This document shows positions 16,201 through 62,990 of a DNA stretch of 64,000 bases, one piece after another. The DNA lies in contig CP136066.1 of assembly GCA_032622095.1 (NCBI GenBank), forward strand, positions 143,373,559-143,437,558. The letters run 5' to 3'. Position numbers and translations under genes: made by a program. Position 1 is the first letter of the stretch. Every line of letters begins with the position of its first letter. The stretch comes from Siphonodentalium dalli (taxonomy: Eukaryota > Mollusca > Scaphopoda > Gadilida > Siphonodentaliidae). The notes below the pieces were generated by a model, which worked only from the letters and a program-made list of their open reading frames with translations, was not told the DNA's origin and searched no databases.

Positions 16201-19200
16201 AATCAATTGGCGCACCCTGCAGCCAGCTTTTATTGGAGAACTTTTTCTTATGTGGATATTTTGGGTCACCGCTAGATGTGAGCCATATTTTGTTCTCAAA
16301 CTGTCCTTGTGAAGACATCACTGCCAGCGGTGATCTTCAATTTTACTATTTTTATGGCTAAATAATTTGGTTGATCCTACAGACGACACCCTTGTCCGAT
16401 CGTCATCAGATTCCACAATTATCTTCTGGATAACCAGGGTGAGAGTAATCTAATTTTCCCGAATTTCGTTAAAAAACATTACCACAGGCAGCAATTTGGT
16501 ATCTTACTCTTTGATCCTCTTTTGCATGACTGAATTTTTTAGCAACTGTACAGACATATCCCTCATCTGGTTTTTTATATACATGTATATCTCTTCATGC
16601 GGATAGCCAGTATTACGTAGGTACTTCAACTTTCTGCATTCCTGTCATCATTTGAAATATAAAAATTTACCTGATACATGCACCCTTCAAAATTTGTTTC
16701 GTCGTATCTATTTTAATGACCCGTATGGTAATATTGATACAGATATATTTGTCAAACATTTCTTTGTACAATATACAGGTATTTAGTTTGTAACTAAATC
16801 TAGAAATATATAATAGTAGCTCGTGGACCCCACTTCGTCCGGGATGTTCCCCTCTGATTTTCGGAGAAATGCGCGATTTAACCTTGAATTGACTATTTTA
16901 AAGGTGAAGGTCATGTCGGGGTCACGATTTGACCCGTCCAAAACACTCCCCGGACAAAAGTCACGACAAAAGTACCCGTCGAAATCCGCCCGGCTTTATA
17001 CCCGATTTGACCTTGAATTGACAATTTTGAATGTCAAGATCAGGTCAGGGTCATGATTTGACCCACCCGAAACACTCCTGGGACAAAAGTAACAGTAGGT
17101 ATCAAATTTCGTTGAAATACTTCCGTTTTACCAGATTTGACCTTGAATTGATCTTTTTGAATGTCAAAGTCAGGTCGGGATCAAGATTTGACCCGTCCAA
17201 AATACTCCCTGGAAATAATTTCCCCTAGGTATCAAATTTCGTCAAATCTGTCCGGCAGTTTTCCCGGCCATAGCTAACAGACAAACAGACAGACAAATGT
17301 CCAAAATATATATTAAACTAGCTGATGTACTCGACTTCGTTCGGGCTAGTTAGGGATTTTTTTTGTGATCGCCTCCATCTGGACAGTACCCAGTATATAC
17401 AGCGTCTGACCAAACTATTGTTCAATTGGTCCAGAAACATGCCTATATCAGCACGTTCGAGAACATGGTCCCACGTGAAATTGGACCCGTCCATATTGCT
17501 CCCGGGATCGAAGTAGTCCTACACACAAATTTTTAGTCGGATCGGTCAAGGTCCAGAAACATGCCTATGAGCGAGGTCAAGTTGACACGTTAAATACCAA
17601 ATTCGAGCAGTGTTAGAGTCTATAACACATACACACATGCATTCACGCATACACACATACATACATACATACAGACAGGTGTTTCAAAATGTATAATCGA
17701 TAGCTACAACAATTCTATGGTAGATAGTTCACGGCCGACCTGATGCATGCATCTTAGTTTTCTTGTAGCATTATATCCGTCCAAAATCAATCACTGCGTG
17801 GGAGTCATTTGGATATATACTTATTAGCGAGTATTCAGTTATTAGGCGTTTAATGCTATAACTATACACACACTATTGATATATGTAGGCTTCTCGTTAT
17901 TTTGAGACATTAACTTTTCCCGCCACACATACGGCATATAATGAATATAGTCTGTGGAACCTGACTATTGTTTCACGCGATAGTTCAATGTCGTGTACAC
18001 AACCAGTAATCGGCATATACCTGTGATTTTGCGAACACCCTCTAATTATCATTGGCTGTGACATTGGTTTGTAGTTTTCGGGTGCAACCTTCACCAGGAA
18101 GTTCACATGATAATTGGCATGCTCTCCGATTTATGTCGCCTTTCATGAACATAAACACAGAAGGAATAGCACATTCCATCTATGACATCCATCTGGCACA
18201 GTCAGATACCTGATGCTGTTTCAAAGAATGCTATTAATATAACCACAAGTTAACAGTCATCGCTGCAATACTAGGTGCATTCATGCAATTTAACTCTTTG
18301 ATTACAAAGTATTAATTGACGAGTAGTTGCCTTGGGAAATGTTCAGATACAAAATATGCCCGTTGAACTTATTATTCCTGAATATTTACCACAAATGAAT
18401 AGGAATCCCTATTAACTGTATTTAGTAGAGGCTCTTATGTCCATTTTCTGGCTCCAAGGTTCAAGCTGTGCTGAAAATCTTTTGACCAATTGTTTGGCCA
18501 AATCTTTTTTGTTTGTTTGTTTTTCGTTTTAATTTTTTTGCCAAATTAAAATGACTTTGACCAAATTTAATCATAATTTTCTGGTCTCACAATTAAGGAT
18601 TATTTTTGTTATATCTAGCATCTAACATTCAATATAATTATGTCCATACCTTCAAATGACGTGTCTATACACATGTTGGGAACTTCAAGCCTGACACACT
18701 ATTAGCTTGAATGTGTCCCAGAAAACTGTTGTCTGATGATCTTCCTGCGGGTTGAAACTTGTCATCAGGTAGAACCCCCCAGGTACCAGTTGGAAAACAA
18801 AAACTTCCAAGTCATGAGAGGGTGCAATTAATATTTTATTTAGTTGGAATTTCGGTTAGGGTTCAATTGGGGGGAGATGAAGTTGGAAATCCAAAATTGG
18901 ACACAGACATGACAATTGGAACTTATTCCCTATTCCTTATTCCTTATTTTCAAAAATGTCGCTTTCGACCGATTTGACGGCATGGGTGGGTGGCCCGCCC
19001 CAAATACCACCTAGAAACACCCGACCCCCCACCCATCACCCCCGGGGGGTGCCACACCGAGGGGGTGAAAATGGGGTATGGACAATTTTCGAGAACGGTA
19101 AGGATTTCGACCGATTTGACGGCATGGGTGGGTGGCCTGCCCCAAATACCACCTAGAAACACCCCGACCCCCACCATCACCCCCGGGGTGCCACCCAGAG

Positions 19201-22200
19201 GGGGTGAAAATGGGGTATGGACCATTTTCGAGAACGGTAAGGATTTCGACCGATTTGACGGCATGGGTGGGTGGCCCGCCCCAAATACCACCTAGAAACA
19301 CCCCGACCCCCACCCATCACCCCCGGGGGGGGGTGCCACCCAGAGGGGGTGAAAATGGGGTATGGACCATTTTCGAGAACGGTAAGGATTTCGACCGATT
19401 TGACGGCATGGGTGGGTGGCCCGCCCCAAATACCAACTAGAAACACCCCGACCCCCCACCCATCACCCCCGGGGGTGCCACCCAGAGGGGGTGAAAATGG
19501 GGTATGGACCATTTTCGAGAACGGTAAGGATTTCGACCGATTTGACGGCATGGGTGGGTGGCCCGCCCCAAATACCACCTAGAAACACCCCGACCGCCCA
19601 CCCATCACCCCCGGGGGGTGCCACCCAGAGGGGGTGAAAATGGGGTATGGACCATTTTCGAGAACGGTAAGGATTTCGACCGATTTGACGGCATGGGTGG
19701 GTGGCCCGCTCCAAATACCACCTAGAAACACCCCGACCGCCCACCCATCACCCCCGGGGGTGCCACCCAGAGGGGGTGAAAATGGGGTATGGACCATTTT
19801 CGAGAACGGTAAGGATTTCGACCGATTTGACGGCATGGGTGGGTGGCCCGCCCCAAATACCACCTAGAAACACCCGACCCCCACCCATCACCCCCGGGGG
19901 TGCCACCCAGAGGGGGTGAAAATGGGGTATGGACCATTTTCGAGAACGGTAAGAATTTCGACCGGTCGGGGTGTTTCTAGGTGGTATTTGGGGCGGGCCA
20001 CCCACCCATGCCGTCAAATCGGTCGAAATTCTTACCGTTCTCGAAAATGGTCCATACCCCATTTTCACCCCCTCGGGGTGGCACTTCCCGGGGTGATGGG
20101 TGGGGGGGTCGGGGTGTTTCTATGTGGTATTTGGGGCGGGCCACCCACCCTTGCCGTCAAATCGGTCGAAATCCTTACCGTTCTCGAAAATGGTCCATAC
20201 CCCATTTTCACCCCCTCTGGGTGGCACCCCCCGGGGGTGATGGGTCGGGGTGTTTCTAGGTGGTATTTGGGGCGGGCCACCCACCCATGCCGTCAAATCG
20301 ATCGAAATCCTTACCGTTCTCGAAAATGGTCCATACCCCATTTTCACCCCCTCAGGGTGGCACCCCCCAGGGGTGATGGTGGGGTTCGGGGTGTTTCTAG
20401 GTGGTATTTGGGGCGGGCCACCCACCCATGCCGTCAAATCGGTCGAAATCCTTACCGTTCTCGAAAATGGTCCATACCCCATTTTCACCCCCTCTGGGTG
20501 GCACCCCCCGGGGGTGATGGGTGGGGGTCGGGGTTTTTCTAGGTGGTATTTGGGGCGGGCCACCCACCCATGCCGTCAAATCGGTCGAAATCCTTACCGT
20601 TCTCGAAAATGGTCCATACCCCATTTTCACCCCCTCGGAGTGGCACCCCCGGGGGTGATGGGTGGGGGTCGGGGTGTTTCTAGGTGGTATTTGGGGCGGG
20701 CCACACACCCATGCCGTCAAATCGGTCGAAATTCTTACCGTTCTCGAAAATGGTCCATACCCCATTTTCACCCCCTCGGGGTGGCACCCCCCGGGGGTGA
20801 TGGGTGGGGGGGGGGGGGTCGGGGTGTTTCTAAGTGGTATTTGGGGCGGGCCACCCACCCATGCCGTCAAATCGGTCGAAATCCTTACCGTTCTCGAAAA
20901 TGGTCCATACCCCATTTTCACCCCCTCGGGGTGGCACCCCCGGGGGTGATGGGTGGGGGTCGGGGTGTTTCTAGGTGGTATTTGGGGCGGGCCACCCACC
21001 CATGCCGTCAAATCGGTCGAAATCCTTACCGTTCTCGAAAATGGTCCATACCCCATTTTCACCCCCTCGGGGTGGCACCCCCCCCCCCGGGTGATGGGTG
21101 GGGGGTCGGGGTGTTTCTATGTGGTATTTGGGGCGGGCCACCCACCCATGCCGTCAAATCGGTCGAAATCCTTACCGTTCTCGAAAATGGTCCATACCCC
21201 ATTTTCACCCCCTCGGGGTGGCACCCCCCCCCCCGGGGTGATGGGTGGGGGGTCGGGGTGTTTCTATGTGGTAATTGGGGCGGGCCACCCACCCATGCCG
21301 TCAAATCGGTCGAAAGCGACATTTTTGAAAATAAGGAATAAGGAATAGGGAATAAGTTCCAATTGTCATGTCTGTAATTGGACACCTCCTCATGGACGGA
21401 GAGGAGAGCCTCTGACTTTTCGTCTCTGACGGTTAACGGATTAACTGTGTCGTTTGCTCAGATATTTATGTGACCATCAAATCAGTGTCCCCATATAAAT
21501 ATTTCAAATTATTTATTCGGACGTTTTGTTTCCGGAAATGTTAGTCTCGGCTGTGTTAAAAATTCCGGCAGTACTGGTGTTTTACTATATTTGCCTAAGG
21601 ACATGAGCTTGACTGATTAAATAGCTGATTACATCCACCCGAATAAGTCCATGATAATTATGTTTCTAAAATAGCTTTTACACTAATCAGAAAGTATGCA
21701 GGTGGTGTTGACATATCAGGCACCGGAGCCGCGAGTTCGCTTGAGGGATAATTCGGAGGTATGCTCTCCTGGAAAATCTTGATTATTAAAGGTACTCAAC
21801 CCGATCAGACGCTCCTAATTTACTATCTCTTTGATTCGAGTCGAGGAACCCACCCATGAAAGCTCAGATAACTATAAAAACAAGTGATAAAGCGGCCAAC
21901 TTTCGTGAATACTCAAGTGGCCGTATTACACTTGTTTTTAGAGTTATCCATCTTCATCCGCAATATTGACCGAGACCATCCTTTTGATGGCGTGTTTCTG
22001 GGCCACAAACAAATGAGATAATAAACTTCAAAAATCTTTATCTGATCACTCTGAGCTTTGATGGGTGGGTTCCTCAACTCGAATCAAATATTTGTTTACC
22101 CCCGAAGCCAAAGAAATAGTAATTTAGGTCAAATTTTAGGAGCGTCTGCTCGGATTGAGTACCTTTAACTACAATTTGATGCGTTCTGGTGGTTTATATG

Positions 22201-39300: not shown

Positions 39301-40179
39301 TGTGTTAAGCCAATGCATTCTCTTATATATGCGAGGCGACCTATGGTCGACTCGCATATCTAAGAGAATGTATTGGCACAGGGCCCTTCTGTTGGGTAAA
39401 GGGTTAAAACAAGGACAAAGTTGTCTAGAAAAATAAAAAGTACTCACATACTGGGACATAATTTGAAGTGAAGTTAAGTGTTATTTAACCACTCTGCTGA
39501 AGTATTCCAATGCATATAGCAAATAAACTTGCACAACATAGGCATTTTACATAAATTGTATATCAAAATTGGCAGCACAAAAATAGGGCCCTGCAAATTT
39601 TCGACAGACGAAATGTATAATGTACCACAACACATGCAATGAAATTGCGTTATCACTTGTCACTGGCCAATCAAAACAATGAATTGATGCTCAATGCTAC
39701 TTGAGCAAACAACAATGAGAGATCTGATTGAGAGTTTATCGCTCATTTTACTTCTATAAATGTTGTTTTATCTGAAAGGGTACTACAACTGATGCCCGAA
39801 CATTTTGACAATGGCAGTTAAATGTTTAAAAAAAAATTCTAACTGTTATAGTGCCTCAATAGTAAAATATTGCTTCAAGTAGTGACATAAGTACATGTTG
39901 CATCTTCAATTGAACTGTTTCATGAATATTTGATTTCACATGATCCTAGCCACTGGAGTTGCACACAATATATGATTTCCATTCCAGCTGAAAAGTTACC
40001 ACCCAAGCATGATAAGAACCAAAGAAGACAAACTATCTCCCCTTAAAGACTGGGACCAAGGAGAAAAGTCAGTGCTTCTAAGCTCCAAGCAAGCCACAAT
40101 CAACTCAAAGAAAAACAATGTGAAATCTATCAAGTTAAAGGAGAAACATAAGAATTATAAGTGTTGTTTCATACTATGA
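13114..40179 (+). CDS. Rab-family small GTPase, complete, 7 coding exons
   Basis: Coding exons 13126-13258, 27380-27440, 28730-28790, 35932-36009, 36500-36607, 38184-38303 and 39988-40179 join in phase (753 nt, 250 aa plus TGA), all with AG/GT borders. Seen in the protein: P-loop GEATVGKT (18-25), switch I threonine T43, WDTAGQE (65-71) with the catalytic glutamine, NKAD (130-133), SAK (161-163), a lysine-rich tail of about 60 residues and a terminal CCFIL. Known for the family: Rabs are GTP switches that recruit effectors to membranes, and a CCXXX end is a Rab geranylgeranylation signal. Inferred: a membrane-trafficking Rab. It does not match a named subfamily well enough to assign: switch I reads ATVGFDF, the RabF4 position reads QYRGV, and the tail is long. 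An acceptor 12 nt before the ATG suggests an upstream non-coding exon. Intron 1 is 14.1 kb. Confidence 0.9.
13441..14055. repeat. Interspersed repeat with three ~163-bp units
   Basis: cccatattcgaacttgacct recurs at about 13561, 13723 and 13887, followed by agttatcatccggaaaccag. Bounded by cccccgaaaaa-type motifs and a gtcccccgaaaaac hairpin at 14030-14056. A related copy is at about 26380-26600. Confidence 0.72.
14057..16799. other. Rab intron 1, no exon seen
   Basis: Apart from the tandem duplication at 15062, nothing recognisable. Frames at 15959-16361 on both strands are complementary shadows. Confidence 0.5.
15062..15370. repeat. Tandem duplication, two ~135-bp copies
   Basis: acgagacatacataatttat..gaatctttttaag (from about 15078) recurs from about 15248 with a few changes. 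Confidence 0.75.
16800..17290. repeat. ~131-bp tandem repeat, three units
   Basis: tttgaccttgaattga at about 16877, 17008 and 17138, each followed by a gtcaggtcggggtc-type motif and ttgacccgtccaaaa. Short frames here are repeat translations. Confidence 0.72.
17291..18894. other. Rab intron 1, no exon seen
   Basis: A cata-rich simple repeat at about 17635-17680, a hairpin relative at about 18320-18400 and A/T-rich sequence. Confidence 0.5.
18903..21375. mobile_element. Satellite-bearing foldback element with 8-bp target duplication
   Basis: 2473 bp. The ends ACAGACATGACAATTGG are perfect inverted repeats for at least 75 bp. AATTGGAC is present on both sides (18895-18902, 21376-21383), an 8-bp target duplication as in hAT-type insertions. 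Inside is a roughly 142-bp satellite: 7 units on one strand (from 18969) and 10 on the other (to 21318), flipping at about 19964. No transposase frame is present. Confidence 0.88.
18969..21318. repeat. ~142-bp satellite, 7+10 units head to head
   Basis: Unit starts (ccgatttgacgg) fall at 18969, 19111, 19250, 19395, 19537, 19680 and 19822. The reversed motif lies at 20013, 20156, 20292, 20433, 20576, 20717, 20867, 21008, 21153 and 21300. Each unit has runs such as GGGGGTGATGGGTGGGGG, able to form a G-quadruplex. All frames stay open through the array because the unit lacks stops; these are not genes. Confidence 0.92.
21790..22164. mobile_element. TTAA MITE, AGGTACTCAACC ends
   Basis: 375 bp between TTAA (21786-21789) and TTAA (22165-22168). 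Ends AGGTACTCAACCCGA/CGGATTGAGTACCT. Both arms hold 'gagtcgaggaaccca..aaagctcag'. Confidence 0.82.
22726..26011. mobile_element. Foldback element FB2, 3.3 kb
   Basis: The ends GTCTGGTCGATAA and TTATCAATCAGAC are inverted and flanked by TA (22724-22725, 26012-26013). The arms (22726 to about 23935, and about 24715-26011) share the 'caagatggcttgcaacatgg' region with FB1. The core has a minisatellite only on the left half (about 23935-24640), then a unique segment. An embedded (TA)n run lies at about 24281-24320. Confidence 0.8.
23935..24640. repeat. Minisatellite of FB2
   Basis: About 40-48 bp units of the same family as FB1 (gagtgactatatggtcatg..ggtgtacatgtatac), all in one orientation, interrupted by a TA dinucleotide run. 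Confidence 0.75.
26380..26600. repeat. Single-unit copy of the 13441 repeat
   Basis: Holds gtctgtatttttggccagta, ttaccatccgtaaacaaaac and cggacggacag, in Rab intron 1. Confidence 0.6.
27380..27440 (+). CDS. Rab exon 2
   Basis: 61 nt between acceptor attatag and donor gtgagt. It completes Gly45 and codes FDFIKKTFAVDGALVQLVI plus two bases of Trp65. This is the inter-switch segment (beta2-beta3). It is too short to stand out as an open frame. It was placed by needing a phase-1 start and a phase-2 end, and both fit exactly. Confidence 0.9.
27736..27843. mobile_element. Half MITE, CAGTAATGCC family
   Basis: Only one arm (gagagctttccgatgaatg.. to GGCATTACTG|TA) is present, in Rab intron 2. Confidence 0.75.
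28440..28615. repeat. Hairpin repeat in Rab intron 2
   Basis: ggtatctcaca..attttatacg..gtttatcaac and its complement flank a gagcctcggtaaacctcggc centre. It ends about 115 bp before exon 3. Confidence 0.7.
28730..28790 (+). CDS. Rab exon 3 (switch II)
   Basis: 61 nt, acceptor aaaacag, donor gtaata. It completes Trp65 and codes DTAGQERFRSLSRLQYRGVQ, the switch II/RabF3 region with the catalytic glutamine (Q70). It ends in phase 0. Confidence 0.93.
29161..33464. mobile_element. Foldback element FB3, 4.3 kb
   Basis: It begins GTCTGGTCGATAA after TA (29159-29160) and ends TTATCGACCAGA(A) before TA (33465-33466). The arms (29161 to about 30490, and about 32790-33464) match FB2. The core is the mirror of FB2: a unique segment first (about 30490-30610), then minisatellite units on the - strand (30610-31445 and 32075-32785). 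A 0.6-kb non-repetitive piece at 31450-32070 interrupts the array. Confidence 0.78.
30610..32785. repeat. Minisatellite of FB3 with internal interruption
   Basis: Units of roughly 40-48 bp (catgaccatatagtcactcc..tatacatatacacc) in the orientation opposite to FB2. The interruption at about 31450-32070 has no recognisable gene. Confidence 0.72.
34017..34279. mobile_element. Double-hairpin MITE, reverse orientation
   Basis: Hairpins around 34074-34130 and 34165-34230. Right end gtcatggaaggg|TTAA. Orientation opposite to the 36758 copy. Confidence 0.75.
34565..34795. mobile_element. Double-hairpin MITE, left end truncated
   Basis: Two ctcttatacatgcgag-type hairpins. The right end atcatggaaggg|TTAA is intact, the left end lost. 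Confidence 0.7.
34923..35113. mobile_element. Double-hairpin MITE, degraded
   Basis: Starts ccatgactggagcttcctga and ends near gcaaggg|TTAA. Hairpins decayed. Confidence 0.65.
35300..35521. mobile_element. Palindromic MITE, CAGTAATGCC family
   Basis: Same palindrome as at 38447. The left end is diverged (GTAATACCC), the right end intact (GGCATTACTG|TA). The centre is gctctcagtgagagc. Confidence 0.8.
35932..36009 (+). CDS. Rab exon 4
   Basis: 78 nt, phase 0 at both ends. It begins GIILVFDISNRSTYELVSFW and ends in NIRE: the beta4 strand and alpha3 helix of the G domain. Confidence 0.93.
36069..36306. mobile_element. Double-hairpin MITE
   Basis: Same family. Right end TCATGAAAGGG|TTAA, left end decayed. 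The second hairpin (about 36205-36262) is nearly perfect. Confidence 0.75.
36500..36607 (+). CDS. Rab exon 5 (G4 motif)
   Basis: 108 nt, acceptor atttcag, donor gtaaga. It codes residues 112-147 including PVVVIGNKADL, where NKAD reads guanine. Phase 0 at both ends. Confidence 0.93.
36758..37002. mobile_element. TTAA-flanked double-hairpin MITE
   Basis: 245 bp between TTAA (36754-36757) and TTAA (37003-37006). Ends CTCTTCCATGA/TCATGAAAGGG. It contains two hairpins of ctcttatatatgcgag with a shared core. The best-preserved member of the family. Confidence 0.82.
37026..37195. repeat. Near-perfect 170-bp palindrome
   Basis: ttatacaatgttgtgtacag.. and its complement meet around 37112 (gacacgccagtgtc). 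It lies in Rab intron 5. A related end is at about 37440-37510. Likely a young MITE. Confidence 0.8.
38184..38303 (+). CDS. Rab exon 6 (G5 motif)
   Basis: 120 nt coding LAEREMAFTYMESSAKTG and the alpha5 helix. Two AGs lie close together. The first (38182-38183) was chosen because it keeps phase 0 and gives the expected LAER start, while the second breaks the frame. Confidence 0.92.
38447..38658. mobile_element. Palindromic MITE, TA-flanked (CAGTAATGCC family)
   Basis: 212 bp, almost a perfect palindrome. Ends CAGTAATGCCCTAA/TTAGGCATTACTG with TA on both sides. The centre is ctctcggggagag. Other copies: 35300-35521, 57894-58455 (with insert), a half copy at 27736-27843, and fragments at about 36408-36432 and 47625-47665. 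Confidence 0.85.
38815..38945. repeat. Palindromic MITE-like hairpin
   Basis: aatgactggaagatcgactg and its complement cattgatcttccagtcattt flank tttgaccggtaa/ccggtcaaaa. Lies in Rab intron 6. Confidence 0.7.
39012..39403. mobile_element. TTAA element with CCCTTTACCCAACA ends, copy A
   Basis: 392 bp between TTAA (39008-39011) and TTAA (39404-39407). Ends tCCTTTACCCAACA/TGTTGGGTAAAGGG. It holds two hairpins with ctcttatatatgcgag arms and gaccataggtcgcc-type loops. Confidence 0.85.
39988..40179 (+). CDS. Rab terminal exon with CCFIL end
   Basis: 192 nt, 63 codons plus TGA. It begins LKSYHPSMIRTKEDK, is rich in Lys and Ser, and ends NYKCCFIL. The CC pair three residues from the end fits a CCXXX double-prenylation signal. 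The stop region is the seed of the minisatellite that follows: copies of this exon's 3' part recur near 40828 and 41702, so the 3' UTR is repetitive. Confidence 0.88.
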   Translation: MKSYHPSMIRTKEDKLSPLKDWDQGEKSVLLSSKQATINSKKNNVKSIKLKEKHKNYKCCFIL

Positions 40180-41745
40180 CAGCTGTGGTACTATGGCCAA
40201 GTTGAGGGAGATCCATACAAATTATAAGTGCTTGTTCATACTATAACAGCTATGGTCAAGTTGAGGGAGATCCATACAAATTACAAGTGTTTGTTCATAA
40301 TGTGACGGCTGTAGTGCTATGGTCAAGTTGAGGGAAACCCATACAAATTATAAGTGTTTGTTTCATACTATGACAGCCATGGTGCTATGGTCAAGTTGAG
40401 GGAAACCCGTACAAATTATAAGTGGTTGTTTCATACTATGACAGCCATGGTGCTATGGTCAAGTTGAGGGAGACCCATACAAATTACAAGTGTTTGTTCA
40501 TAATGTGATGGCTGTGGTGCTATGGTCAAGTTGAGGGAAACCCATACAAATTATAAGTGTTTGTTTCATACTATGACAGCCATGGTGCTAAGGTCAAGTT
40601 GAGGGAGACCCATACAAATTATAAGTGGTTTTTTTTCATACTAAGACAGCTATGAAGCTAAGGTCAAGTTGAGGGAGACCCATACAAATTATAAGTGTTT
40701 GTTCATACTATGACAGCAATGGTGCTATGGTCAAGTTGAGGGATACCCATACAGATTATAAGAGATTGTTCATACTATGACAGCAATGGTGCTATGGTCA
40801 AGTTGAGGGAGACCCATACAGATTGTCAGTGCTTCTAAGCTCCAAGCAAGCCACAATCAACTCAAAGAAAAACAATGTGAAATCTATCAAGTTAAAGGAG
40901 AAACATAAGAATTATAAGTGTTGTTTCATACTATGACAGCTGTGGTACTATGGCCAAGTTGAGGGAGATCCATACAAATTATAAGTGCTTGTTCATACTA
41001 TAACAGCTATGGTCAAGTTGAGGGAGATCCATACAAATTACAAGTGTTTGTTCATAATGTGACGGCTGTAGTGCTATGGTCAAGTTGAGGGAAACCCATA
41101 CAAATTATAAGTGTTTGTTTCATACTATGACAGCCATGGTGCTATGGTCAAGTTGAGGGAAACCCGTACAAATTATAAGTGTTTGTTTCATACTATGACA
41201 GCCATGGTGCTATGGTCAAGTTGAGGGAGACCCATACAAATTACAAGTGTTTGTTCATAATGTGATGGCTGTGGTGCTATGGTCAAGTTGAGGGAAACCC
41301 ATACAAATTATAAGTGTTTGTTTCATACTATGACAGCCATGGTGCTAAGGTCAAGTTGAGGGAGACCCATACAAATTATAAGTGGTTTTTTTTCATACTA
41401 AGACAGCTATGAAGCTAAGGTCAAGTTGAGGGAGACCCATACAAATTATAAGTGTTTGTTCATACTATGACAGCAATGGTGCTATGGTCAAGTTGATGGA
41501 TACCCATACAGATTATAAGAGATTGTTCATACTATGACAGCAATGGTGCTATGGTCAAGTTGAGGGAGACCCATACAGATTATAAGTGTGTTTTTCATAC
41601 TACGACAGCTATGGTGCTATGGTCAAGTTGAGGGAGACCCATACAGATTATAAGTGTTTTTTTCATTCTATGACAGCCATGGTGCTATGGTCAAGTTGAG
41701 GGAGAAACATAAGAATTATAAGTGTTGTTTCATATTATGACAACT
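40180..41745 (+). repeat. 67-bp minisatellite derived from the Rab terminal exon
   Basis: About 23 units of 66-69 bp (tatggtcaagttgaggga..cccatacaaattataagtg). The unit includes the exon's last coding bases (attataagtgttgtttcata plus stop). A higher-order block of 757 bp (from 40069) repeats from 40826 and carries a copy of the exon's 3' part (40828-40936). A third exon-end copy is at 41702-41740. Confidence 0.9.
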
Positions 41746-43065
41746 ATAAACCAAGTCTTCTCGGACCAAAACAGCTCGGGATATCAGTTGGATTAATTCT
41801 GTTCTGGAATGAGTCCTGTCCTGTACTCTTCTATAATGGGCTTTCATTGAAAAGACGTACTACATTTACACGACGAGTCCAGGCATTCACATGAAATCCT
41901 GCATGTGATTAATCATCTGACATGTCCGCAATTAATCTGCCTTCACAATGATATATCATTTACTAACAGAAAAATGTAATGTGATGATACAATCTTTTAA
42001 TGTATTGTTTACATACATTTTCTGATAGTGTGACACATCAAAATTCTCTGGAAAACAAGGGTTTGTCTACTTATAAATCTTGTTGCTTTGACATTCTGGC
42101 CATAAATTCCGTTATAGAAGAGTAATAGGATGGGACTCAGTCCAACACAGCATCAACCCAACTGATATCCCAAGCTGTTATATGACAGACGTTTTGGTCT
42201 AACAGTTATGGTGTTATCAGCTTGGTGTCTGTAATTTCCAGCAATGACAAACAAGAATTTTTGTCAGGGTGGAAAAATATTGGCCATGTGAGCGCCACCT
42301 AAATATTTTCTTATTACCAGTGAGGCTTACTTGGTTAAGATTACAGTTTACTGTTGACTATATTCCAGCATCTCCAAAATGTTGATTTGGGTAAAATTTT
42401 CAATTCCGATGGCTGATTTTTTTCATTTGTTCAAACTTATTAGAAATCTTGAATGAATTGAATAAGTGGAGATTTACTCAACGTTTCAGAGGTCCTGGGT
42501 ACCCAATAATTTAACTTATAATTAAAAACAAAAATTCAGCATTTTGAATTCCTGGGAATTTTACCAAATCAGTGTCAGTGAGCCGAATCTCAAAATAACG
42601 GGTGTGATGACTCATGGCCAACATTTTAGTAAAGCTGCAAAATGAATTTTTTTTCATGTTCACCTGGTGAGCAAATCATTACCTCCTCTGCATCTGCGAA
42701 TATTCTCTGATTGCTAAATATAGATTGTGTTGCTGCTATGAAATTTTCAAAGATCACATTGTATTCGAAAGTTTTCACTTTTTGTCATTGATTCCGAGTG
42801 CATGCATAGTTTTGAGGAATATATTTGGAAATTTTGAGTAGGCCAGCAACTGAAAATGAATAAAAAATTTAACACAATATCACAACATGCCAGTTTATAT
42901 ACATCACTCTTCATTTCAATCCGTACTTTCATTACCAGTAATTTTTATTAGATTGAAGTTTTTTGTTAACTTGAAATTTTTAAAGATATATCGCTTTGCA
43001 AGGTTTTGTTATCAGTGGAGTATGAAATTTTAATAAAATACTGCCAACGATAATATCTCACAATA
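41746..43065. other. Rab-KTI12 intergenic, no gene seen
   Basis: A/T-rich sequence between the Rab minisatellite and a MITE cluster that separates the convergent Rab and KTI12 genes. No clear AATAAA for Rab was found. Confidence 0.5.
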
Positions 43066-53500: not shown

Positions 53501-56500
53501 CCAATGATATCCATATTTGTATGGTTCTATTGAGACAGACCGAAGATATTTTAGGCTGTTGAAGCTTTATTTGGCCGGTTTTTGCCGTTTTGTTGGGTAA
53601 AGGGTTAAGAGGATATTTAATATGGTTAATATAGCAGGCTCAGTTTTAACATCTTTTATGGGCAAAAATTATTAAATTGTTTGACATCTTATTCAAAATA
53701 TATTTCATATGACCAAGAGTCCAAGAATCTGGGACAGAAGTTAACAGGTTGTTCAACAAGATGATAATAAACTTTACATATCTATATTTTAATTATAAAT
53801 ATAGATCAATATTTTATTCCATAAATTTGGATTTGTTTCATATTAAAACGGATTATTCCAATGAGGAGAGAGATTGCTTCTACTTCCTACCAACTGCTGG
53901 TATAGCCGATGCGGTCACTATCACTTAAAATGTGCTGACGGGTACACAGATTTTGAAAATGTGCTGAAGGATGCACATGGTTTGCTAAAATATGCTGAAA
54001 GGTACACAGGGCTTGCTAAAATGTGCAAAAGGGTACACAGGTTTTGAAATATTGGTGATTCTTAATCAAATCAAGAGGTTGCCACAGTGGTGCTGGGTTA
54101 TCTCCAAGTGCAAAATCAAACATGGACAGGTAGAAACCCAAATACTGATGGTAAAAGATAGGAGAAAATTGATGAACGAAGGGTGGTAACTCCAGCAAAA
54201 AAATGCAAACAATATCGTTGTGCAATCTTTTGAAATCATTCATGATGGTGAACCTCCATACCATTTCATTCAGATCCGATAACCCATCGTTAGATATCTG
54301 CGCGAAGACAAAAATAACATGATTTCCAGATAAACAAAGAAGGTTAACTTTGGAATGAAAAACGTGAATACAAGTAACAAAATACCAACAAACCTACATA
54401 CCAAATTTCATACAGATCCGATGACCCATGCTGATATATCTGCATCGATTGACAAAAAACCCACATTTCCAGATAAACAAAGAAGATAACTCTAGAATGG
54501 AAAACACAAACAATGCCATTTGCCCCTCTTTTGAAAGCAGTCATGATGGCGAACAGCCATCCCAAATTTCATTCAGATACGATAACCCAAGTCTGAGACA
54601 TATGCCCTGTCAACCGGACAAACGGGCAGAAGCAGTCAATCCAGTATACCACCATTCTCTTTATAATAACAAGGCGATTTGTCATTTTTATGGACAAAAA
54701 CAACAAGAAAATCAAGAATTGTCAACAGAAAAAGAGATACAGAAAATTAAAAAAAATATAAATGCTGTGTGCTGTTGTATCTAATCCCATACATTGCTCT
54801 ATGACTTCAATGGCACTTGAAAGTCGCTAACTGGATGTTTTGCTGAGTATATTTCTATCATTTGAAAACTAACTGACTTCACTGCATTATATAATTGTAA
54901 ATGCTTGTTTTTGGAAGACAAATATCAGTTATGTCAACCCTTTATTTTTTGTCTGCACCCATCAGCAATTTGTTTTCCTTTTATTCTAATTTTCATTGGA
55001 ACATAAACAATTATTCTATCAGAAATCACATCCCTGAGCACTTTTTTAGGTGAGATTGACCCATTCAAAGCTAGAATATCATAATAAAACAGGTACATAT
55101 AGCATGATATGAATGATCTATCTTTAACTGAAAGTTTGAGCATAGCGGTTACTGCTACTTGAAAATCTTAAGTGGCAGAAGCAAAGTGTCGCAACCAATT
55201 AAAATTGTATTACCACAGCCAATAAAATTTGCTCTTAATCTTTTCATGATGGGAGCTGCGCTGGTCAAGGTAAATATTGTTAGGCCAACGCATTCTCTTA
55301 TGTATGCGAGGCTCCCTTTCAGAGACTCGCATATATAAGAGTATGCAATTGCCCAGGGTTTTCGAAAAATTTCAGGAAGCTCCAGTCATGAAAGGTTAAG
55401 GCACGCTGTCATTAAAATGGCATTATAGTAAACTTTACCACGAATTGTCCTGCACATTTGAATTCTTCGTTAATTGAATAGAGATACATGTATTAATACT
55501 CACCACACAGTGAGGAGTGGAACAGGCTTTTGTAACACAGTAAAGTTCATATCTGTAGCCTGTCAATAAATAATAACAATAATTATTGAGGAGTGAAACA
55601 AGTTTCCATAACAGAGTAAAGCTCATATATCTAGCCTGTAATATAATAATAACCAGCGACAAGTCGACAGGCTTTCTGTAAAAGAAGAAATTATCAATTT
55701 TTTGACACATGACACTCAGCTTTCAAATTTCTGTCTATAAGTTAATTTTACAAGACATTTCTAGCATCATAATGTTTAAAATTTATTTCATTGTCTAGAC
55801 TCTTCAGTTTCCTGCTATCCAAATTTTCAGCTGCTACTGTGTTTGGTTTAAATTTGCTATCAGTTATAAATCTTGAATCGGAATATGGCGCTCGTCAAGT
55901 GTTTTTGCCTGAAAGAGTGGATCTGTTGCAAAAGAATTATTGAAATTAGTTGACAGCTCCTAACTAGAGGTGATTCAACAACAAGCCTGTAAATTTTCAA
56001 AACAATTCTCAATAAATGTGGGCTGCAGGGTGTGCTGATGAATTCACATTTGAAATCAAAATAGCTGCTGGTGGCCATGTTTTTTTTTCAACAATTTTTT
56101 GAAAAAAGGGAGGCTCCCATCTAGAGGTCACCCCGAAGATTCATATGAAGTTTGTTGATGATTGGATGATAAATCATACAAAGAGTAAAATCCAAGATGG
56201 TTGCTGGCAGTCATGTTTTTTAACAGAGTTAGGAAAAAATGATAAGTACCCATCTAGATGTCACCCCAGGGATCCATTTGAAGTTTGGTGATGATCGGAT
56301 GAGTGATATGCTCTGTAGAGTGTGCTTTCGGATTTAGTGAAGCAAAGAGTAAATATACTATATATAAAGTTGGATGAGTTATCGCGCTATTACTGTCGCG
56401 AATGACCAAATTGCTAAAAATAGACAAACTAAGTCCCATAACTTGGGTATAAAAGACTGGACAAACCTAGTTTTTGAACTCATTCGAGATATTGTTGCAA

Positions 56501-59500
56501 CAGACCCATAGACCAAATATGAATGAAATTGGTTTGAGTTATCGCGCTAATGGAGTCGCGCCTATCTGGACCCCCGGATGCCCGCCCATACATCCTTCCA
56601 TGACTGGAGCTTCCTGAAATTTTGCTAAATCCCTGTGCCAATCCATTCTCTTATATATGCGAGTCTCCCATAGGGAGCCTTGCATATATAACAGAATGCA
56701 TTGTCCTAACAATATTTACCTTGTAAGCCAGTGCATTTTCTTATATATGCGGGGCTCACAGAGAATGCACTGACACAGGATCTTTAATGCTGCACCAGTA
56801 CTCAGGGGTATTAACATTTGATTCACTTATTGACTCGTCTATAATTTAATTTTCCTTACCTTTAATATAATTTAAGGAGTCAAGTATCACAACATCATCT
56901 TTATTAAGTATCCTGAAAACAAATAACACAGGACTATTAAAATGTATTCATTGTTCTGGGTTATATTGCCTATATTGCTTTTGATTCAAGTTCCAATGTA
57001 ACATGATTGATTGTAGATCCTAACTCTCTCTGGTTGGTTCAGGAGAAACAAAGCAAACCATGATATGAAATTAGATTTTATAAAAGATAGTTGTTTGAGT
57101 TTTAAATAGATATCTGGAGTTACATGTATGATTAGATCTTCAACATTGGCTTCAACATTTAATTAAAGGTGTTTACAGAATTCCAAACTGCATGAATGAA
57201 ATTACTTTGATCAAACAATAAACAACACATATCATTCAAGAGACATCCTAAACTTATGTCTAGAGTGAAAAAATTAAGACATTTAACCCTTCCAGGACTG
57301 GAACTTTCTGAAATTTTGGAAAAATCCTGTGCCATAGGGAGCCTCGCAAATATAAGACATGGGACTGACAATATTTACATTGACCCTGTGAGCCAATGCA
57401 TTCTCTTATATGCTAGGCTCCCTATGGGAGACACACATATATAAGAAAAATGCACTGGCACAGGATCTTTAATGCTGCACCAGCACAGCTCCCATCATGA
57501 AAGGGTTACAATATTTATAAATAACATTGTGAATAGATACTGTAGTTCAATGATCAACTGACTCGTGTAGCTTGGTCACTATTTCTCAAAACTTGATTGC
57601 ATGAATTATATGCAAGCTTTACCTTTGTACACTTGATTTCAGATCTGCTCTTGTCCTGATTTCTTTTTTTGAATCTGACAAAAAATAAACAAAACTAATT
57701 ATGGTATTGGTCATTTTCTTTTTCTGACCCTACAGAATACAAGGTGAAAAGGTATTGATTTCTTCTACACCTTCCATTTATTTGCTGACCATTTATCTAT
57801 CAGGCACCTGTCACTTAGCTTCAAGCGCGACTGATCAGGAATTAAGGGCAGCTAGCATATTGAAGAGATTTAGATGGAAATTTCGAAGAAGTACAGCAAT
57901 GCCCTAAATAATCAACTCCTTAACCACAGCAGAATTATGGGTAACTTTTCAGGATTTAGTTGGTAATATGGCTTGTTGCCATTAATTGGAAAGCTCTCAC
58001 TGAGGCTGAAGGGGTCACTATCACCAAAAAAAGTGCTGAAGGGTACCGTACACAGCTAGGGTTTGAAAATTTGCTGAAGGGTACACAGGGTTTGTGATCG
58101 GGACTAACACCATTACTTAATCTGTGTTTCTGAAAGTCTGGCGCGCATTGGCAGTTTGTTTTCAGTTCATTTTAATGTTCATTGGAACGTAAACAATTAT
58201 TCTCTAACATAAATCATGGCAGATACGAAAACTAAACGTCATTTAGAATGACATTTCAAAACCTGTGTACCCTTCAGCACATTTTCAAAACCTGTGTACC
58301 CTTCAGCACTTTTTTTGGTGAGAGTGACCCCTTCAGCCTCACTGAGAGCTTTCCAATGAATGGCAACAAACCATATTTCCGACTAACTCCTGAAAAGTTA
58401 CCCATAATTATGCTGTGGTTAAGCCTTAAGGAGTCAATTATTTAGGGCATTACTGTACTTCAAAGTTATAAATATTACAAAGCATTTTGGAATGCACTAA
58501 AAGATTGAAACCATCTTTTTAAAGATAAAATGATAAAAAAAATATATATTATGACTACTTAGTGTTATTGTATAATTCTTGCCATTCACATACTACAAGT
58601 AACTCAATAGGTTATGGCAAGAAAATTAAATCCAATAACTTTTCTGGAGAAGGATATTACTGAAGCAAAATGAGTTTATGTCTGAACCAAATTGACCCAA
58701 TATGGGCCAAAGATGGAATTGTCAATCAATAATAAAATATAACATACAATATACAGCCCTCATAATTGGCTACGGCAATCAGCAATGCCGAAGCCATTTG
58801 CTGAAGCAAACTGGGCCACAGTAAAGGGTTGCCGTAGCAGATTGCCGAAGCCAAACAATCTGAATTAAAAGGACTGAATATACGCATCTAAGCCTTAACC
58901 CTTTCATGATGGGAGCTGTGCTGGGGCAGCATTAAAGATCCTGTGCCAGTGCATTCTCTTAGTGCATGCAAGTCTCCCATAGGGAGCCTCACATATATAA
59001 GAGAATGTACTGATTTACAAGGTGAAGGTAAATATTTTTAGGCCAATGTATTTTCTTATTAGGGAGACTCGCATATATAAAAGAATCCATTGGACCATGA
59101 TTGGACAGGATTTTTCAGGAAGCTCCAGCCATTGAAGGGTTGAAACAGCAACAATTAAAGGCCCACTTAATTTTTATGTGTCTCAGAAGGTGCCCTAAGA
59201 GTAATTAGAAAATAGCTGAAATCATAAAAACATCCCCCCCCCCCATTATGGCTCCCAAAATGCAACAGAATTCATCAAACTGTATTTATTTTCAATGGAA
59301 GGGGACTAACTCTATACCTATATATATAGAGTTATCCCCCCTTCCATTGAAAATAATCAACTTTGTGCATAAACTTTAGCACAGAACAGATGTCGATATC
59401 TCAGGTATAATTAATAAATGTTTTAGACTCGTTTGTCATATCGAAACTTTATTAGGTGGAACATTCCACCACATGATCCTAGCATTTTATATGCACAGCA

Positions 59501-59914: not shown

Positions 59915-60397
59915 TATTTCTCGTTGAACGATCTTAAATCGAGCACGTGTAATTTGTTTACGGAAATGAACAAATTAAAAATACTAAATCTAGTTTGGCA
60001 TGTGGACGGAACGAAATATTCTTATTGTGTTTTTTGTTTGTTTGTTTTATAATAGAAATGTAAAAATGTAATTGTCCTCATTTGTCAATTGTTTATGTTG
60101 AATTTATGACTATCTATATATGTATATTGTTTGTGTTGTGCTTACCAATGAAGGTGAGAAATTATTTTGTTTCAAATTTCAGACTTGTGCTTCAAATTTA
60201 CATGACATGTAAAGATATTGGGCTGAAGTGATTAAACACAAATTAATAGGTTGAATACAATTGGGCTGAGATTGCAAACGAAAGTAGAATCTATAAATAC
60301 AGACCAATCAGAGCGAAATATGAACAGGTACTCATGCAGGAAGTTACTTCATTTTAGCGCTAAAATTGCGCGGGAAATACGAGTGAAACAACAACAG
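59915..60397. promoter_or_regulatory. Divergent KTI12-DUT promoter region
   Basis: 483 bp between the two ATGs. On the DUT side are CCAAT (60304-60308), the palindrome TTTTAGCGCTAAAA (60352-60365) and GCGCGGGAAA (60368-60377), whose complement is the E2F consensus TTTCCCGCGC. No TATA box is evident. Inferred: S-phase control of DUT, as is known for dUTPase genes, possibly shared with KTI12. Confidence 0.6.
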
Positions 60398-60561
60398 ATG
60401 CCGAGTGAAGTCGTGTCGGAGCCACCAACAAAGAAACTCTGCACAATGCCATCTACACATGAGCCCGTCGAAAAGCCGGCGTTGAAGTTCAAGAAATTGT
60501 CTGCAGATGCATTTGCTCCAACAAAAGGCTCCGATCTGTCTGCTGGTTTCGATTTATTCAG
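60398..60561 (+). CDS. DUT: dUTPase exon 1 (motif I)
   Basis: Start ATG at 60398. 54 codons end ...AGFDLF plus two bases of Ser55 at donor ag|gtatga. PPTKKL near the N-terminus could serve nuclear import (inference). Confidence 0.88.
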
Positions 60562-62990
60562 GTATGAAATTTCATATTTTCCTGATTTCAAATTCAAGAT
60601 AGATTTCGCAGAGTACTATTGTCAGTATTGAATTAGAAATGCAAGATTCTCGGTGAGGTGAGTTAAGAATCATTGTTTGATGGTGCTTCCTGCATCATAA
60701 CCTATGATGATTAGAAATAGAATACAACAATTATTCTTTGATTTTGTTTGTTCTGGAAAAATTTATAAGATCAAACCGTGACAAACGTAGTGTTCTCATA
60801 AATGAAACAACACAGGGCGGTTAAAAAATTTCCTCACTTCCAATCTATCTATAGGTTTCTCCTAACCTTCAATAAGGCTTCATCATGTTGAGAATGCATT
60901 GAATTTGAAAATGACATGAGTGAAAAAAGTAATTGACCCTTTGATCGAGTTTGATAACAGGGTGGAAAACAATTCTCCTGGATGATCTTGAACAATTTGG
61001 TCATTAAAACTTTTACCCTTTAATCTTTATTAAGAAAAAAGATATGTCACAAAACACCAAATTATTTTTAAAAAAAATTCCGAAACAGAATTATGTACCT
61101 TCTGTAGCAACATAACTTCATACGGGAGACAAGCTAGCATCTTTTCTTTGAATATGCAATCTCAAAATCTATCCTCTTTGAATTCTGTGACATTATTTTG
61201 AACAAGTGCAATATGTCCACAAAGATTACCCCAGAATAGATAATCCTTGGTTTAGGAACAGACAAATAAGACTTGGATATACTTGCAGGGTTTCCGCTAG
61301 GGGTTGGGGGAATGTGGCCGTATTTATGAAGCACATACTCGGTGTCCTGTCAGGAGAAAATTTAGATGTTTATCAATGAAATGTAACCGTTTCCTTGCAC
61401 TTGAGACAACAAGCAGGAGCATAGAAGCTTGGTATAGAAACTAAATTAAAACATTTCGTCTTTCTTTGTTCTCGAGTTAATGAACTAAAAGCATGTAAGC
61501 ACCACAACATACAGTGGATAGAATCGGTCCACAATGGAGTGAAATAATAAAAAATTTTAAGGTTAAATTGAGCAAGCAGTTAAATCTAAGAAAAAAAAAT
61601 ACAATAATAATCTGAATCACCACTCCCATATTACAATTTCTTTGGAATCGGGGGTAAAAATATTTTATTCAAGTTAAGGAGCCCACCCATCAAAGCTCAA
61701 GAGTGATCAGATATAGATTTTTGAAATCTATTATTTTTCACTTTGGCGGTTTGGCAAAAAGTCGACGAAGACGGTGTCAGACCAAATTGCAGTTGAAGAT
61801 GGATATTAAACTCTAAAATCAAGTGGCTTTGGGTGTTAAAATATTTCACAATCCGGGAAATGTTTCTATGACTTCAGTTATTTTCTATGACTGATTATTT
61901 ATTCATAACTCATTAGTGTTGAAACGATTAGCTATTTTAAGGAATTGACTAGTCGCCAGAGGTAATCGACGACTAGTCGGACCCCTTCTAAGAGTTCCCG
62001 TTTCTATGCCCATATGACGTATAAAATGGGCCATGTGGCATCGCAGTTTCGAGTATCCAACTCTTCCGTGTCAGAACGTTCAAACGGAAAGCACGTGAAC
62101 TATGTAATCTCCGTTTTGCCCGTGAGTCTCCCAATTTGATGTATTAAACCCATCTCTCCTGCAACCTCCATATAATCTCACGGTTGGGGAATGCAGGTAA
62201 TAAAAACAGTTTATGTAAAAAAAATTCTGTTGCATTCTGGGATCCACAGGGTGGGGGGGGGGGGGGGGGTCCTATGATTTTAGCAGTTTTCTATTTCTCT
62301 GTGGGCATCTTCTGAGAAACAGATGTTTCAATAGTGATGAATTATAGTATTTTAATCATATTTTATGGCATAGATTGTTATTAAAACCGTATATCAAGTC
62401 ACTATAAAAAAAATAATCGGCGACTCAAAAATTAATAAGTGGGCCTTTAAAACTGTCAGAGGTGGGATATATTTGTAATTCGGTGCATGTATTTATACTT
62501 TTTAGTGCTCATGACTGTGTTGTCCCAGCCAATGGTAAATTTTTGGTGAAAACAGACATCCAGATCGCTCTGCCTGATGGTTGCTATGGGCGTGTTGGTA
62601 AGTTCTGGTTAAGCTTTTCAAAACTTTTGTGCTTTCATTTTATGGTTGCAGTAAAAACTAGCGTTAACAAGACTGAAGGTGCATAGGAATATTCCACCAT
62701 CACAGACTGTCAGTTCATGTGTTCTTAGTATCTGTCCAAAAGAAAATTACATATTACAAATATGTTGTCTTATTAATTCAGAAAACTTTTCTCAACAAGA
62801 AAGAATTTAATATTTGGATTCAATTGCCAAATAATTTTTACCCTTCCCTTCTGTGGGTTTCACATTTGTATCTTAATCTTGAGTTTTTACATTTCTTTGA
62901 TAATGAATCAATGATATATTATTTTGTTTATGTTATTTATTTTAGCCCCCAGATCTGGCTTGGCTGTGAAGAACTTCATTGATGTTGGTG
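60398..62990 (+). CDS. DUT: dUTPase (dUTP diphosphatase), 5' three exons, runs off the right edge
   Basis: Exons 60398-60561, 62506-62597 and 62946-62990 code residues 1-100 in phase. Seen: a Lys/Pro-rich lead, then KFKKLSADAFAPTKGSDLSA GFDL (trimeric dUTPase motif I), VKTDIQIALPDGCYGRV, and APRSGLA (motif II), ending NFIDVG with a split Gly. Known: the homotrimer hydrolyses dUTP to dUMP and pyrophosphate, keeping uracil out of DNA. The exons for motifs III-V (YRGNVG, the end loop) are not in the last 1 kb and should lie beyond 64000. The frame is open upstream to an ATG at 60251. A Met at 60320 would add an Arg/Lys-rich 26-residue lead resembling a mitochondrial presequence, but that stretch overlaps CCAAT and E2F-like sites, so 60398 is the preferred start. 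Confidence 0.93.
60562..62505. other. DUT: DUT intron 1
   Basis: Holds the MITE fragment at 61620 and a G run at about 62253-62270. No coding exon seen. Confidence 0.6.
61620..61840. mobile_element. MITE fragment, AGGTACTCAACC family, in DUT intron 1
   Basis: Shares 'aaagctcaagagtgatcaga' and the following 100 bp with the copies at 43066 and 43863. The ends are missing. Confidence 0.6.
62506..62597 (+). CDS. DUT: dUTPase exon 2
   Basis: 92 nt, acceptor tttttag, donor gtaagt. It codes (S)AHDCVVPANGKFLVKTDIQI and on to GCYGRV, the beta-strand segment before motif II. Phase 2 in, phase 1 out. Confidence 0.94.
62946..62990 (+). CDS. DUT: dUTPase exon 3 (motif II)
   Basis: 45 nt, acceptor attttag, donor gtaagt. 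It codes (A)PRSGLAVKNFIDVG. The Arg-Ser-Gly of motif II contacts the nucleotide phosphates. It ends one base into the next Gly codon. Confidence 0.94.

What the first reader, a model, noticed from the sequence alone, without database searches (positions are those of the whole stretch)
18903..21375. Satellite array packaged inside an element with 75-bp inverted ends and an 8-bp target duplication
A 142-bp satellite (7 units one way, 10 the other) is bounded exactly by perfect inverted ends and AATTGGAC duplications. So the array moved as one transposon instead of arising in place. The head-to-head flip near the centre copies the FB1 design in an unrelated element type, hinting at a common mechanism for making inverted arrays (for example, template switching at a hairpin).
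Basis: partly seen in the sequence, partly recalled or inferred. Interest (0 to 1): 0.8.

Follow-up and report, generated by a model that had tools for sequence, protein, structure and literature searches.

The report
Foldback transposon with satellite arms
This 2.5-kb block is one copy of a large family of jumping DNA elements whose two inverted arms are built of satellite repeats; nearly every copy examined has its own private join where the arms meet, so the inverted array seems to be remade again and again, probably by DNA-break repair and not by one ancestral flip.

Summary
A 2,473-bp element (window 18903-21375) carries head-to-head 142-bp arrays, identical inverted ends and an 8-bp target duplication. 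Its genome (2.23 Gb) holds 368 exact copies of the 27-bp end; 356 could be listed and give 123 facing pairs, 290 bp to 27.4 kb. In 54 of 56 whole copies arms run inward from both ends; two have one arm. Perfect duplications are 9 bp in 23, and 8 bp in 12, of 51 independent insertions. Paralogous empty sites exist for the window copy and another. So the array moves as a transposon.

It is a non-autonomous foldback element like Tetris and Galileo 2-TIR copies, most likely Mutator-type; hAT does not fit. Hairpin template switching was tested and not supported as the general mechanism: 39 independent core-less insertions have 38 different junctions, at random repeat phase, with excess microhomology; mirror symmetry in 2 of 23. 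Copies keeping a core or decayed zinc-finger domain share ancestral borders. Best reading: repeated internal deletion by end joining between long arms. Transposase not found. A new member of a known kind.

The parts
18895..18902 (+). left target-site duplication AATTGGAC
   Evidence: one similar stretch in paralogous empty sites
18903..18962 (+). left unique terminal segment (about 60 bp) starting ACAGACATGACAATTGG
   Evidence: 368 exact 27-bp ends in the genome
18963..19963 (+). left arm: about 7 units of the 142-bp repeat, outer to inner
19963..19964 (.). head-to-head junction (repeat phase 8 on the left, 65 on the right, 1 bp microhomology)
19964..21315 (-). right arm: about 9.5 units of the same repeat in opposite orientation
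21316..21375 (-). right unique terminal segment, inverted copy of the left
21376..21383 (+). right target-site duplication AATTGGAC

Best explanation
It is a copy of a non-autonomous foldback DNA transposon family. SHOWN: about 60-bp conserved ends followed by satellite arms, 8-9 bp target duplications, empty sites, hundreds of ends, arms of differing length, and a core or zinc-finger inner domain in some copies. INFERRED: a transposase supplied in trans, probably Mutator-like, cuts at the ends and pastes the element. INFERRED from the junctions: the head-to-head centre is not an inversion event but what remains after the middle (core plus parts of both arms) is lost by end joining with short microhomology, during repair of breaks or of excision gaps. 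This has happened separately in nearly every core-less copy examined. Arms can also change in place (one same-site pair shows it for unit number).
For: Ends and pairs. Target duplications. Empty sites: 4 uninterrupted and 3 filled loci for L010, the filled halves overlapping by the 9-bp duplication plus one base that matches by chance; for the window, 5 of 6 other matches run across the insertion point, 3 of them fetched and aligned. Orientation: of 56 whole elements, 40 read end/+/-/end, 11 the same with one non-satellite segment between, 1 with two, 2 have extra switches (L027, L062), 2 one arm only. Junctions (first + to - switch): 38 distinct among 39 independent core-less insertions; phase difference uniform (Rayleigh p 0.39); microhomology mean 1.95 against 0.79 for random joins, 0 of 5,000 resamples as high. 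Mirror test: 2 of 23 elements at p<0.05. Deletion series: core borders sat|GTGGTATATCAACG and sat|ATCACC (or AGCACC) both present in L023, L030, L031, one of them within a few bases in L100/L101, and one seen in the pieces L034, L040, L080; zinc-finger border sat|GTTTAATTAGTCTG on one side in L007, L008, L013/L014, L018 and on both in L022. In-place change: L028/L033 share flanks but have 19/23 and 6/33 full units.
Against: No transposase found: Pfam on six frames of the 6.9-kb core gave nothing, 0 of 150 scored MULE hits (813 candidates) lie in the 123 pairs, nearest 31.9 kb from a listed end, and one multicopy MULE family has different ends. 16 of 51 insertions lack a perfect duplication, though several are near misses. 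Four of 38 junctions are within 3 bp of symmetric (1.9 expected), L027 has a double switch, and L022 and the 27-kb copy have inverted-duplicated inner parts (94.7% and 99.9% identical), so some fold-back copying probably occurs too. In three of four same-site groups unit numbers did not clearly differ (L010/L048/L049, L100/L101; L013/L014 differ by about 45 bp inside one unit). 'Core first, deletion later' is inferred from shared borders.
Confidence: 0.8

Rival explanations
1. The centre is made by replication template switching at a hairpin in the satellite, so one arm is a copied mirror image of the other.
For: 4 of 38 junctions are within 3 bp of equal phase against 1.9 expected, e.g. L010 at ATGGACCAT; the join shared by L026 and L028 sits on an 8-bp stem; L027 switches twice. 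L022 and the 27-kb copy carry inverted-duplicated inner domains.
Against: Phase differences are uniform (p 0.39) and mirrored units are no more alike than shuffled ones in 21 of 23 elements.
Confidence: 0.1
2. Two half elements, from sister chromatids or from neighbouring copies, are joined end to end after breakage, giving random-phase head-to-head junctions without an ancestral core.
For: Random phases and short microhomology fit any end joining; clustered one-sided ends exist, e.g. C7:15967191-15983006 with three forward ends; pooled over all unit pairs, arms of one element are no more alike than units of different elements (0.9585 against 0.9590).
Against: Element by element, the two arms are more alike than units of other elements in 24 of 29; copies with part of the core or zinc-finger domain and one ancestral border look like intermediates of internal deletion.
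Confidence: 0.15
3. An ordinary satellite array that arose in place and happens to lie between chance inverted repeats.
For: One 218-bp satellite fragment without ends was found.
Against: 368 exact ends, perfect target duplications in 35 of 51 insertions, empty sites.
Confidence: 0.01

Closest known systems
Tetris foldback transposon of Drosophila virilis (PMC4079207; abstract, section 10 and part 1 of section 16 read)
   Same: Flanking end domain, then tandem repeats (about 220 bp) in the inverted arms, variable middle, no ORF, 8-10 bp duplications, unit number differs between alleles, no autonomous copy found, assigned by inference to Mutator.
   Different: Sequences were not compared here. 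Over a hundred paired copies here against three structurally complete ones there; arms of up to about 33 full units; a zinc-finger repeat array as inner domain. Tetris repeats also form free kb-size arrays; here 16 of 17 arrays seen still have an end.
Galileo 2-TIR and recombinant-TIR copies, P superfamily (PMC3573991; abstract, section 7, five passages and part 1 of section 10 read; PMC3688188 abstract read)
   Same: Gradient of internal deletions down to two arms joined; tandem repeats in arms expand independently; inner sequence recruited into the inverted repeat. Galileo arm repeats hold extra transposase binding sites, which may be what the units do here (inference).
   Different: 7-bp duplications there, 8-9 bp here; P-type transposase known there, none found here; far longer repeat arrays here.
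Tm1 Mutator/Foldback elements of root-knot nematodes (PMC3169594; abstract and section 9 read)
   Same: Composite arms with a variable number of repeats, 9-bp duplications, cargo classes, Phantom/Mutator transposase in some copies.
   Different: Mostly 14-bp units, different end motifs, low copy number (section heading); transposase-bearing copies known.
FB of Drosophila and TU of sea urchin (recalled; the TU search found no held paper)
   Same: Foldback arms of short tandem repeats, 8-9 bp duplications, variable middle.
   Different: Short repeat units; sequence not compared here.
Helitron-borne satellites of oyster (PMC8268682, passages read)
   Same: Short satellite arrays dispersed by a mobile element.
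   Different: Helitrons lack this kind of inverted ends and target duplication (recalled); the arrays there were not described as head-to-head in the passages seen.

Membership tests
Foldback (structural class) | Long inverted arms made mostly of tandem repeats | tested here: met
   54 of 56 whole elements have both arms; 2 have one arm
Foldback (structural class) | Variable or absent middle segment | tested here: met
   12 of 56 with a non-satellite middle (zinc-finger or core), 44 without
Mutator superfamily | 8-11 bp, mostly 9-bp, target duplication | tested here: met
   23 of 51 with 9 bp, 12 of 51 with 8 bp, 16 of 51 without a perfect one
Mutator superfamily | Mutator-type transposase in an element with the same ends | tested here: inconclusive
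   none in the core; 0 of 150 scored MULE hits inside 123 pairs; one MULE family has other ends
hAT superfamily | 8-bp target duplication | tested here: not met
   9 bp outnumbers 8 bp, 23 to 12 of 51; empty sites bear out 9 bp at one locus
hAT superfamily | Short ends with A at position 2 and G at position 5 (motif recalled) | tested here: not met
   ends read ACAGA or ACGAA
hAT superfamily | hAT transposase | not tested
   no genome search made for it; no Pfam hit in the core
P superfamily (Galileo-like) | 7-8 bp duplication and THAP transposase | tested here: inconclusive
   duplication mostly 9 bp; THAP not searched in the genome
Helitron | No long inverted ends, no target duplication (recalled) | tested here: not met
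   inverted ends and duplications present

The most novel reading that the evidence does not exclude
The long satellite arms themselves provoke breakage (hairpin or cruciform), and the centre is rebuilt by end joining about as often as the element transposes, so each insertion carries a private junction. The family would then be a natural, countable record of how a cell joins broken inverted arrays, and a route by which a transposon manufactures and disperses head-to-head satellite arrays.
Probability: 0.4. Interest if true: 0.55.

Novelty: new member of a known kind. Interest (0 to 1): 0.4.

Why it matters
It shows that a dispersed satellite with head-to-head arrays can be almost wholly transposon-borne, and gives a large sample in which the origin of the inverted centre can be tested. 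The test favours repeated deletion with microhomology over one ancestral flip or hairpin copying, which bears on how foldback elements in general (FB, Galileo, Tetris) keep their shape while changing size.

Tried and rejected
hAT membership: rejected on duplication length. Template switching as general origin: rejected on phase and mirror tests. Search for an autonomous copy: Pfam on six read-through frames of the L031 core, MULE scan, ends followed by another base (only 2), interior of the 27-kb copy (one reverse transcriptase, no transposase), ends of one MULE family: all negative. The read-through frame of the L008 zinc-finger segment hit five unrelated Pfam families (best FokI_D3, E 2.3e-13, two above cut-off) with no single stretch passing; I disregard these as effects of a repetitive frame. 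Of 20 spot samples in 17 long copies, 13 hold L031-type core (some with further stretches shared among samples), 6 only satellite, 1 neither. Not done: the 110 unpaired ends were not followed except where they fell in C1 clusters; flanks of the pairs not fetched were not read. Literature: searches list no paper on this family in the held library; this does not show it is unpublished. The organism was not identified.

Rows dropped: 5 same-site duplicates (L014, L033, L048, L049, L101) before duplication counts; L033, L048, L049 and also L026 (same junction as L028) before the junction statistics; only the first + to - switch of L006, L027 and L062 was counted. The copies were found by exact ends, so similarity of ends is partly by selection.

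Full report
OBSERVATION. Window 18903-21375 is as described: AATTGGAC on both sides (18895-18902, 21376-21383), inverted ends ACAGACATGACAATTGG, and a 142-bp repeat, about 7 units one way and about 9.5 the other. The perfect inverted match is 101 bp, being about 60 bp of unique end plus the beginning of the outermost repeat unit.

COPIES. The host genome (unnamed, 2.23 Gb, 9 contigs) has 368 exact copies of the 27-bp end, 183 forward and 185 reverse, control 0. Splitting by the preceding base listed 356 of the 368. These form 123 facing pairs of 290 bp to 27,410 bp, median 4,128 bp, together 663 kb, and 110 unpaired ends; only 2 of 130 back-to-back gaps are under 40 kb. In the first 28 whole copies read, 12 (the window's among them) have both 75-bp ends identical to the window's, which suggests a young family, though exact ends were the search key. 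A variant end, ACGAACATGACAATTGG, has 78 exact copies, and one such element has the 9-bp duplication AATAACAAA.

ANATOMY. I read 56 whole elements of the 123 pairs, 50 under 5 kb and six of 5.9-8.3 kb. Of the 56, 40 read end, inward array, inward array, end; 11 the same with one non-satellite segment between the arms; one (L029) with two such segments; L027 has two extra switches; L062 has an extra short reversed piece at the left; L045 and L053 have one arm only and yet perfect duplications. Unit numbers of the two arms differ widely. After removing five same-site copies, 51 insertions remain: 23 have a perfect 9-bp duplication, 12 a perfect 8-bp one, 16 none perfect, several of these being near misses or separated from the end by a few bases. 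The duplicated bases are 71% A+T.

EMPTY SITES. A query of the joined flanks of L010 gave 10 matches: three filled loci, each in two halves that overlap by the 9-bp duplication plus one base matching the element end by chance, and four uninterrupted loci at 90-100% identity, three over all 111 bp and one over 107. For the window the two own halves overlap by the 8-bp duplication plus two chance bases; of six other matches, five run across the insertion point, and the three I fetched (79-81% identical) show one stretch like AATTGGAC, with one or two differences. So insertion with target duplication is shown, also for the window copy.

SATELLITE WITHOUT ENDS? A 49-bp stretch of the unit occurs 3,026 times exactly; only the first 100 were listed, in 17 clusters on contig 1. 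Ten clusters have an exact 27-bp end. Of the other seven, six have a recognisable end (three with variant ACGA ends, one with a single mismatch, two degenerate) and one, a 218-bp fragment at C1:91.69 Mb, has none. At C1:16.33 Mb and C1:63.91 Mb only one end was seen. The sample is small but the satellite looks transposon-bound.

CENTRE. The first head-to-head join was located in repeat phase for every copy without a core. Among 39 independent insertions there are 38 distinct joins; L026 and L028 share one, with different target duplications, so a join can be inherited through transposition. Phase difference between the two sides is uniform (Rayleigh p 0.39; 11 of 38 within 20 bp, 11.0 expected), which is not what copying back from a hairpin gives. 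Microhomology averages 1.95 bp against 0.79 for random joins, 0 of 5,000 resamples as high. If one arm were a copied mirror of the other, the nth units from the centre should match; they do not in 21 of 23 elements. Element by element, the two arms are slightly more alike than units of other elements in 24 of 29, but pooled over all unit pairs there is no difference (0.9585 between arms, 0.9590 between elements). Against the deletion reading: 4 of 38 joins are within 3 bp of symmetry (1.9 expected), and L027 switches twice.

CARGO AND DELETION SERIES. 12 of 56 copies have a middle. One kind is an 84-bp-periodic, decayed C2H2 zinc-finger array (zf-H2C2_2, E 3.3e-17 for a frame of L022) in L007, L008, L012, L013/L014, L018 and L022. 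In L022 it lies in both arms as a 713-bp inverted repeat, 94.7% identical, with the same border to the satellite on both sides; L007, L008, L013/L014 and L018 keep that border on one side only; L012 is a diverged version. The other kind is a core of up to 6.9 kb in the copies read, without long ORFs or Pfam hits; L030 and L031 are 97.9% identical over about 4.9 kb, L023, L029 and L100/L101 are shorter versions, and two borders recur. 13 of 20 spot samples from 17 long copies contain this core. In the 27-kb copy the core is itself in inverted duplication (2,408 bp, 99.9% identical) around about 9 kb with a reverse transcriptase (RVT_1, E 8.8e-30). Thus inner parts do become inverted-duplicated at times, but the usual state is loss of the middle.

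MECHANISM. Shown: insertion with 8-9 bp duplication, and a different join in nearly every core-less insertion. Inferred: a transposase acting in trans on the roughly 60-bp ends (one-armed copies still have duplications, so two arrays are not needed), and loss of the centre by end joining with short microhomology, as in deletion derivatives of other cut-and-paste elements. The units may serve as extra transposase binding sites, as reported for Galileo (PMC3688188, abstract); that is not tested here. Change in place: of four same-site groups, L028/L033 differ in unit number (19/23 against 6/33 full units), L013/L014 by about 45 bp inside one unit, and L010/L048/L049 and L100/L101 by a few bases.

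CLASS. Structure and duplication length agree with foldback elements that are placed in Mutator: Tetris, whose authors used the same argument (PMC4079207, sections 10 and 16 part 1), and Tm1 (PMC3169594, abstract and section 9). Galileo shows the same two-arm deletion derivatives with a P-type enzyme (PMC3573991, abstract, section 7, section 10 part 1). hAT is not supported. The genome has many MULE transposase matches, but 0 of the 150 scored (of 813 candidates) lie in the 123 pairs, and the one multicopy MULE family examined has other ends. The enzyme is unknown.

VERDICT. A real and abundant family, probably young; a new member of a known kind. Its value is the large set of private joins, which turns the question of how foldback centres arise into a count.

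Noticed in passing
window 57888-58461 and 53926-54058: A second, unrelated inverted-repeat element with arms 57919-58046 and 58296-58423 (94% complementary) containing a repeat near AAAATGTGCTGAAGGGTACACAGGTTTTG; more copies of that repeat lie at 53926-54058.
   Followed up: partly
L106-L108 (C1:114.92 Mb, C4:247.12 Mb, C8:3.69 Mb): A multicopy MULE-encoding element whose own ends carry short tandem CGTTTCGG repeats that differ in number between copies: a small foldback-like end in a MULE of the same genome.
   Followed up: partly
C1:152894993-152922402 (L104, L065, L105): The 27-kb copy has its core in a 99.9% identical inverted duplication around about 9 kb that holds a reverse transcriptase and a 203-aa frame; a 184-residue piece of that frame had no Pfam match.
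   Followed up: partly
L010, L048, L049; L100, L101; L088, L089; L086, L093: Same insertion with same flanks on different contigs or far apart on one, so filled host loci are themselves duplicated and dispersed.
   Followed up: partly
window 40130-41747: A 1.6-kb tandem array of a 67-bp unit, about 24 copies.
   Followed up: no
window 60251-60631: Frame with a stretch that looks by eye like the start of a dUTPase; Pfam gave no match, so only a guess.
   Followed up: partly
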